Below are positions 63,069 through 63,896 of a stretch of DNA of 64,000 nucleotides, piece after piece. A program made the translations under genes and the position numbers. The DNA is taken from the NCBI RefSeq assembly GCF_030758455.1, contig NZ_CP132353.1, forward strand, positions 744,001 through 808,000, given 5' to 3'. How positions within the stretch are numbered: position 1 is the stretch's first letter; each line of letters starts with the position of its first letter. Under the pieces are notes generated by a model. It was not told the origin of the DNA. It worked only from the letters and a program-made list of their open reading frames with translations, and made no database searches. This DNA comes from Erwinia pyri. GTDB lineage: Bacteria > Pseudomonadota > Gammaproteobacteria > Enterobacterales > Enterobacteriaceae.

Positions 63069-63896
63069 ATGTCTAACTCCTATCAGTCCGAGATCCCCAA
63101 GGCCCGCGTTAACATCCAGTTAAGCCTGCACACGGGCGGTGCCCAGAAAAAAATCGAACTCCCCCTCAAGCTGATGGTGGTGGGGGATTACAGCAATGGT
63201 GCCGAGCAACGTCCGGTGTCGGAGCGTGAGACTGTCAGCATCAATAAAAACAACTTCGATAACATCTCACAGTCACTGCTGGGCCTGGTGGGGCTGGGTA
63301 TTCCCGGCACCGCTGAGCATATCCCCGCCCCGATGTCGCGCTTTCTGTCACTGCTTGGCGTGCTGCAGCAGCCCGGGAAAACTCAGGAGGGCATGCAGGC
63401 ATTGGTGAGCCTGCTGGCGCCTGACACCAGAGTGCAGGTCAGCCCGTACTGCCTGCGGCCGGTGGAGATCGGTAAACCACTGGGCTTTTACGGCGATGAA
63501 GATTTTCTGCTGGATGGCAACATGCCGCTTGGCGATGAAGCGATGGATGCCAACAGCCAGCTGCTGATTGGACTTTCCACCGATAACGAGCAGGAGACAC
63601 AGGGCTGGAAACCAGATGGTCTGCTGTATCAGGATTTTCTGGTCATGCTGAGGGTGTATCTGGGCTGGCGGTTTAAGGCAAAAATCACCCTGACCACCCG
63701 CACCTGCCTGCTGGCACTCCCTCCGTTGGGGGAGGGACCTTTCTGGCTCGGCATGAACGGTGTGCTGGGCGTCGAAGGCGATAACCTTCCGGATGATATT
63801 CCGCAAACATTTACCACTGAACTGGGTTACTACGCCGGGCTGGAGCCTGCGATACCACAACAAGGAAACCGACGTGTTACGTACAAGTTTGACTAA
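63069..63896 (+). pseudogene. tssB'-'tssG in-frame chimera (type VI secretion remnant)
   Basis: An intact 275-residue frame whose first about 65 residues match TssB/VipA (YQSEIPKARVNIQLSLHTGG, LPLKLMVVGDYSNG, VSERETVSINKNNFDN) and whose remainder matches the C-terminal part of TssG (LLGLVGLGIPG, QEGMQALVSLL, LLYQDFLVMLRVYLGWRF). In intact clusters these genes lie many kilobases apart with tssC, tssK, tssL, tssF and others between. The junction is near 63260. The product lacks the TssB sheath-forming helices and the TssG N-terminal region, so neither function is expected. tssJ follows with 23 bp overlap, as normal after tssG. Confidence 0.8.

What the first reader, a model, noticed from the sequence alone, without database searches (positions are those of the whole stretch)
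63069..63896. In-frame fusion of tssB and tssG: a type VI secretion cluster collapsed by an internal deletion
The N-terminal 65 residues are clear TssB and the rest is TssG C-terminal sequence, in a single uninterrupted frame. In intact enterobacterial clusters many genes separate the two. The simplest reading is one deletion that removed the sheath, baseplate and membrane-complex genes and left a fused frame reading into tssJ. Keeping the frame could be chance or could preserve translation into tssJ. A new functional protein seems unlikely but is not excluded.
Basis: partly seen in the sequence, partly recalled or inferred. Interest (0 to 1): 0.85.

Follow-up and report, generated by a model that had tools for sequence, protein, structure and literature searches.

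The report
Collapsed secretion cluster leaves fused gene
A bacterium has lost nearly all of a gene cluster for a molecular spear gun, and the two ends of the deletion happen to join the start of one gene to the end of another in a single reading frame; this is an ordinary form of gene decay, although databases hold many similar joins from related bacteria.

Summary
The ORF at 63069-63896 is TssB residues 1-65 (PF05591, 1.7e-19) joined in frame to TssG residues 152-361 (PF06996, 7.1e-15), followed by complete tssJ and tssE, then a bgl-type operon. In six relatives 22.9-32.6 kb separate the join points. Genome searches found no TssC, TssK, TssF or other TssB, which argues against misassembly. 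The remnant shows no sign of decay. It is not unique in kind: of two close Erwinia relatives one has an intact and one a collapsed cluster, with an in-frame 618-bp loss in tssH. Of 74 long TssB-bearing database proteins, 47 are joined to one of 12 kinds of T6SS gene (some near copies); TssG and TssF joins also occur. In one Enterobacter TssB allele the break recurs at codon 110 with about ten acceptors (15 of 19 proteins inspected), unexplained. T6SS deletion remnants are already in print; the frame is probably kept by chance.

The parts
62614..63068 (+). retained upstream region and ribosome-binding site of tssB
   Evidence: The nine best blastn hits, all upstream of tssB in relatives, align at 71-76% identity over 331-464 bases (L124 and L203 are the same record); alignment of ten leaders.
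63069..63263 (+). tssB 5' part (codons 1-65)
   Evidence: PF05591 1.7e-19; 98.5% identical in protein to TssB of G002 and G051; against G051 12 nt differences, 10 codons changed synonymously and 1 non-synonymously.
63261..63266 (+). deletion junction; the bases GATAAC just before it are shared with tssB, and GAYA with tssG relatives
   Evidence: Junction alignments to relatives' tssB and tssG.
63264..63896 (+). tssG 3' part (TssG residues 152-361) with its own stop codon
   Evidence: PF06996 7.1e-15; 88-89.5% identical to TssG of Erwinia persicina and Kosakonia oryziphila.
63874..64000 (+). tssJ, complete; starts at GTG 63874, overlaps the end of tssG, and runs past the window edge
   Evidence: Aligned to Lelliottia TssJ 1-180/181, PF12790 1.2e-26. 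tssE (151 aa, PF04965 4.2e-11) follows outside the window, then a bgl-type operon.

Best explanation
This is the remnant of a T6SS cluster (layout tssB-C-K-L-ompA-hcp-H-vgrG-...-M-A-F-G-J-E) from which an internal stretch of roughly 23-33 kb was lost by deletion. The left end lies in tssB codon 65, the right end in tssG codon 152. The ends were joined by illegitimate recombination or end joining with little homology (inferred). The join kept the reading frame by chance, about 1 in 3 (inferred). The leader, ribosome-binding site, fused ORF, tssJ and tssE remain and are probably still transcribed and translated (inferred). Without sheath, tube, ATPase and most of the baseplate the locus cannot make a secretion machine.
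For: Both halves assigned by Pfam, NCBIfam and PDB sequences. Order and strand are as in intact clusters. No TssC, TssK or TssF and no second TssB in G000. The region is single copy in a 4.52-Mb contig of a genome rated 100% complete. Same-genus neighbours show the same process. G051 keeps all 11 core genes looked for; G002 lacks tssC, K, M, A, F, G and J there, and its tssH carries an in-frame 618-bp deletion; their main shared blocks are 99.0-99.5% identical, the 3' part of tssH 95.2%, short pieces in the vgrG region 68-80%. E. persicina G011 lacks tssC and hcp, has only ends of tssH, tssA and tssE, and a tssB with frame changes that is joined near codon 117 to the stretch before tssK. Similar joins recur elsewhere: L092 has tssB-tssC-tssK'::'tssG, out of frame, and many database proteins join two T6SS genes.
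Against: No reads could be mapped over the junction. No strain of the same species was available to show the state before the deletion. The TssB half is closest to G051 and G002; G051's TssG is of another subtype (about 46% identical to the Lelliottia type) and G002 has none, so the parent cluster was not exactly like theirs. No sequence decay is visible in the remnant, which is also what one would see if it were still under selection.
Confidence: 0.92

Rival explanations
1. The join is not a deletion within one cluster but recombination between two different T6SS clusters, one giving tssB and the other tssG-tssJ-tssE.
For: The TssB half is 98.5% identical to G051 and G002. G051's cluster has another TssK, TssM, TssF, TssG and TssJ subtype (44-62% identical to the references; G002 has lost those genes), while the TssG half is 88-89.5% identical to the Lelliottia/E. 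persicina subtype.
Against: TssB does not track the subtype: Pantoea brenneri (L125), TssB 95% identical, carries the TssK of the other kind of cluster, the kind that fits the TssG half; and G008 has both halves at 85-86% identity 29 kb apart in one cluster. A simple deletion in a mosaic cluster fits equally well.
Confidence: 0.1
2. Assembly error: the genome really has an intact cluster.
For: No reads to check.
Against: The missing genes searched for are absent from the whole assembly, the contig is 4.52 Mb, and completeness is rated 100%. Collapse of a non-repeated 25-kb stretch is not a usual assembly error (general knowledge).
Confidence: 0.03
3. Frame retention was selected, because it keeps tssJ and tssE translated by coupling or keeps a useful fused protein.
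For: The TssB part, TssG part, TssJ and TssE show no private change at invariant sites (0 in each). tssJ overlaps the end of tssG, as in intact clusters. Many in-frame fusions exist in the databases.
Against: Protein databases show mainly in-frame events, so the excess is built into the search. At DNA level both in-frame (G000, tssH of G002) and out-of-frame (L092) events were seen. TssJ and TssE have no role known to me without the rest. A recent deletion explains the lack of decay.
Confidence: 0.07

Closest known systems
Deletion remnants of T6SS i2 clusters in Enterobacter bugandensis / E. cloacae (PMC10763514; passages read)
   Same: Internal deletions leave truncated tss genes (tssC cut at 153 aa, tssH matching the first 402 aa, tssBC remnants) at the place of a cluster that is complete in other strains.
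   Different: The passages seen describe truncated genes, not an in-frame fusion of two T6SS genes. I did not read the whole paper.
T6SS-2 partial locus of Pantoea and Erwinia (PMC3235180; passages read)
   Same: A T6SS locus reduced to a few genes and thought potentially non-functional; further gene loss in some Erwinia species.
   Different: It is a conserved eight-gene locus. It fits the other T6SS locus of this genome (L229), not the window's remnant.
P0001, a 378-aa TssB-TssG fusion from a contig of 1783 bases
   Same: The same two genes joined in frame.
   Different: Other break points (about TssB 88 and TssG 70), so an independent event.
L092, MAG of Enterobacter sp.
   Same: Cluster collapsed into mid-tssG, with tssJ and tssE left.
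   Different: The left end is in tssK and the join is out of frame.

Membership tests
Deletion-derived gene fusion remnant of a T6SS cluster | Both halves align to two genes of one cluster, in the same order and on the same strand | tested here: met
Deletion-derived gene fusion remnant of a T6SS cluster | Intervening genes absent from the genome | tested here: met
   TssC, TssK and TssF absent from the genome. hcp, tssH, tssM and tssA absent at the locus. Divergent hcp paralogues and a short tssM occur elsewhere; tssH and tssA were not searched genome-wide.
Deletion-derived gene fusion remnant of a T6SS cluster | Relatives with the intervening block | tested here: met
   22.9-32.6 kb in six relatives (from coordinates)
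Deletion-derived gene fusion remnant of a T6SS cluster | Reads cross the junction | not testable with these tools
   No reads available
TssB / VipA sheath subunit | Full-length match (155 positions of PF05591; TIGR03358 cut-off 97.25 bits) | tested here: not met
   Only profile positions 2-63 of 155; 66.1 bits
TssG baseplate subunit | Full-length match (304 positions of PF06996; TIGR03347 cut-off 143.3 bits) | tested here: not met
   Only the C-terminal part, to profile end 304; 65.3 bits
Working T6SS (13 core genes) | Sheath pair TssB/TssC, TssK, TssF, TssM, TssL, Hcp, VgrG, TssH and others | tested here: not met
   Two PF05954 hits with open frames of 384 and 397 aa exist; their context was not examined.

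The most novel reading that the evidence does not exclude
T6SS operons of enterobacteria lose their middle by a recurrent route with preferred break points in tssB and tssG, so that in-frame chimeras such as the window's TssB65::TssG152 are produced again and again. In one Enterobacter TssB allele the left break is fixed at codon 110 while the right break varies over at least nine places, which would point to a specific breakage or boundary mechanism (a preferred break site, a stop to end resection, or a lost mobile element) rather than random deletion.
Probability: 0.15. Interest if true: 0.6.

Novelty: new member of a known kind. Interest (0 to 1): 0.33.

Why it matters
It documents a bacterium that appears to have disarmed itself of a contact weapon by one or a few deletions so recent that the remaining genes look untouched. 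The wider pattern, 47 of 74 long TssB-bearing proteins joined to 12 kinds of T6SS gene, suggests that internal deletion is a common way for these clusters to be lost, gives ready-made markers for counting such losses in genomes, and warns that annotation by domain ('contractile sheath small subunit', 'TssG') can score dead clusters as present.

Tried and rejected
A hotspot special to tssG: among the 120 listed hits (of 2137) of the TssG-seeded search, 9 carry a second T6SS Pfam domain; a control search seeded with the end of TssF gave 11 of 120 listed (of 1273), both counted from the Pfam column, so tssG is not special as an acceptor. Within TssG, 9 of 16 acceptor points counted by eye fall at residues about 135-160 (binomial P 0.0003 against uniform). 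The count was made after seeing the data, the points are approximate and near copies were merged by judgement, so I give it little weight.

Frame preference: not testable, because protein databases show mainly in-frame events (could only return proteins of about 207 aa or more).

Accelerated decay of the remnant: not seen; but only about 1.9 private changes in all would be expected of an average relative, so the test is weak, and rows under 60-70% identity or 95% coverage were dropped before it. A link between TssB subtype and cluster subtype: not found. Rfam match in the leader: none above gathering (two hits at E 0.3-0.6, chance). Structure prediction was not run: a fold model would not bear on the question. 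Literature: searches gave no listing that describes a TssB-TssG fusion; I saw search listings, and passages of three papers.

In one search some one-gene shortfalls are not real or were not pursued: tssM in G043 and tssH in G005 are cut by my own stretch boundaries; G008 tssA and a stop in G016 tssK were left. The missing 5' genes of G046 are due to its contig edge, so only tssA and tssE count there. The tssB of G011 is cut at its start by my stretch boundary.

Full report
Observation. The 275-codon frame at 63069-63896 is real. Residues 7-66 match T6SS_VipA (TssB) and the C-terminal part matches T6SS_TssG; cut at residue 65/66 each piece hits only its own family, with E-values 1.7e-19 and 7.1e-15. 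NCBIfam models for the two full-length proteins find both but below their cut-offs, as expected for two fragments. PDB sequences of VipA/TssB align mostly to residues 7-68 and of TssG to 62-218. In DNA, tssB of relatives is followed to base 63263 and tssG of relatives from about 63264. The six bases before the junction, GATAAC, are the same in the closest tssB relatives; the tssG relatives printed have GAC or GAT followed by A at that place, so 3-6 bases could have been shared, which is no more than chance.

Surroundings. Upstream, about 450 bases of leader and the ribosome-binding site are kept (nine best hits 71-76% identical; alignment). Downstream come a complete tssJ starting at 63874 and overlapping tssG, as in intact clusters, then tssE (151 aa), then a bgl-type regulator, PTS transporter and glucosidase, named from their sequences by me. 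tssE and what follows lie outside the window (locus L002).

The genome. The window is G000:C1:744001-808000; C1 is 4.52 Mb, and the genome is 4.76 Mb in 6 contigs, rated 100% complete. Family searches of the whole genome found no TssC, TssK or TssF, and the fusion as the only TssB match. Three Hcp-like genes and one fragment lie elsewhere; the three are 33-60% identical to a T6SS Hcp. The only TssM match is a 707-aa protein in an eight-gene group with kinase, phosphatase, FHA, TagF and DotU/TssL domains. This fits the eight-gene T6SS-2 partial locus described for Pantoea and E. billingiae (PMC3235180, passages). So the genome as assembled has no T6SS that could work, and the missing genes searched for are not hidden on another contig.

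Relatives. In 37 genus genomes searched with the fusion (G000 included), 31 have some match; none but G000 matches over the full length. In the named-species collection 100 stretches encoded a relative and 79 loci were kept; in the 62 of these with a tssG match (L063-L123 and L139), 60 are full length and 2 truncated (L092, L113). The distance between the two join points is 28,952, 26,870, 22,910, 32,556, 25,552 and 26,132 bp in G008, G043, G013, G018, G005 and Silvania hatchlandensis. The parent cluster therefore lost roughly 23-33 kb here.

The same process in close kin. I compared 12 clusters of the genus, G000 included, for 11 core genes. G000, G002 and G011 lack or have broken several genes; G046 lacks most of tssA, and tssE, but its left part is cut by the contig edge. 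G002 and G051 are an informative pair: their main shared blocks are 99.0-99.5% identical, the 3' part of tssH 95.2%, short vgrG-region pieces 68-80%. G051 has all 11 genes, while G002 has lost tssC, K, M, A, F, G and J and carries a 618-bp deletion inside tssH that keeps the frame (206 codons). The two alignments overlap by 5 bases at the join, of which 4 agree and only 2 are contiguous from the left side, so homology there is slight. The other gaps of G002 hold sequence without a match in G051 and were not resolved. In E. persicina G011 the tssB remnant has frame changes and is joined near codon 117 to the stretch just before tssK, without tssC.

The kind is common. A search of 5.8 billion proteins with the fusion gave 2137 hits, 120 listed. 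The window's own fusion is not among those listed, and the best hit P0001 is another TssB-TssG join with other break points. Among the 120, 23 are not of the usual 360-361 aa, and 9 carry a second T6SS Pfam domain. A control search with the C-terminal third of TssF gave 11 of 120 listed with a second T6SS domain, so this is not special to TssG. A third search with residues 1-80 of P0001, which admits only proteins of about 207 aa or more, gave 74 proteins; 47 of 74 have a stretch of at least 40 aa matching another T6SS gene: TssC 11, TssH 10, TssG 5, VgrG 5, VasL 5, DcrB-like 3, TssM 2, TssJ 2, and one each of TssF, Hcp, TssA and TssE. Some are near copies of one event (for example P0284, P0286-P0289 and P0296), and some may join neighbouring genes (P0249), so deletion events are fewer than proteins. 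The TssB-TssH fusion P0287 is in 84 contigs, listed for the E. cloacae complex.

An unexplained detail. I looked at 19 of the 74 by eye. In 15 of the 19, all of one Enterobacter-type TssB allele, the TssB part ends at the same place (...FTPEQVAAQI, codon 110) and is followed by about ten different sequences: TssC at residues about 203, 263 and 370, TssH at about 292 and 443, TssG of the other subtype, VasL (two readings), a DcrB-like protein, and a protein with domain PF11185. The other 4 do not break there (P0254, P0255, P0271, P0272). A fixed left end with many right ends is not what random deletion predicts. I had no DNA for these proteins. The window's own break, codon 65, and that of G011, about 117, are elsewhere. 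On one Klebsiella and one Citrobacter IncHI1B plasmid and one E. coli chromosome that I opened, a broken tssB of related sequence is followed by sequence that the Citrobacter record annotates as IS256 and the E. coli record as a transposase; in the Klebsiella copy homology ends near codon 100. This hints at mobile elements but proves nothing for Enterobacter.

Decay and age. The TssB part, TssG part, TssJ and TssE of G000, compared with 19, 56, 55 and 49 relatives, have 0 private changes at positions otherwise invariant; the mean for the others is 0.29-0.74 per gene. The deletion is thus recent or the remnant is still constrained; recent is the simpler reading. The test is weak.

How it works. 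Shown: two gene ends in one frame, missing block, intact downstream genes, intact and collapsed relatives. Inferred: one deletion or a few, joined with little homology; chance retention of frame; continued expression; no function. TssB 1-65 and the end of TssG belong to assemblies whose other parts are gone (established knowledge of the T6SS sheath and baseplate; structures listed).

Known or new. Deletion remnants of T6SS i2 clusters with truncated tssC and tssH were described in Enterobacter (PMC10763514, passages), and partial T6SS loci in Erwinia (PMC3235180, passages). The fusion here is a new member of that kind. I found no description of in-frame T6SS gene fusions in the listings, which search open-licence papers only.

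Noticed in passing
database proteins P0256-P0266, P0268-P0270, P0273: In one Enterobacter-type TssB allele the fusion break is at the same codon (110) in 15 of 19 proteins inspected (of 74 found), with about ten different in-frame acceptors, one of them not a T6SS gene (PF11185). Unexplained.
   Followed up: partly
P0287: A 586-aa TssB-TssH(ClpV) fusion is present in 84 contigs, named for the Enterobacter cloacae complex, so one such chimera has spread or is clonal.
   Followed up: no
L229:6484-15470 (G000:C1 about 1,909,480-1,918,470): Second T6SS locus of the same genome: kinase, phosphatase, FHA, TagF, short TssM (707 aa), DotU/TssL and two more genes; fits the T6SS-2 partial locus in print.
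   Followed up: yes
window 62614-63068: A leader of about 450 bases upstream of tssB is conserved across genera, with blocks such as GTTACAT and a stretch some 100-160 bases before the start; no Rfam family above gathering. Probably regulatory.
   Followed up: partly
L237:4756-5342, L241:4440-5128, L242:4440-5026: A broken tssB with its leader, followed by transposase-like sequence, is carried next to an RND efflux operon on IncHI1B plasmids of Klebsiella and Citrobacter and on an E. coli chromosome.
   Followed up: partly
L202:4348-4352 against L203:8013 and 8627: In-frame 618-bp deletion inside tssH in genome G002 relative to its close relative G051.
   Followed up: yes
L214:19561-19901 (minus strand): In E. 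persicina G011 a tssB with frame changes is joined near codon 117 to the stretch just before tssK; tssC is missing.
   Followed up: partly
L239:3001-3447: An orphan tssB of 148 aa in E. coli 28Eco12, with no other T6SS gene annotated within 3 kb and a broken integrase nearby; 16 of the 60 spread rows (28Eco12 among them) show the same partial match (query 1-341).
   Followed up: no
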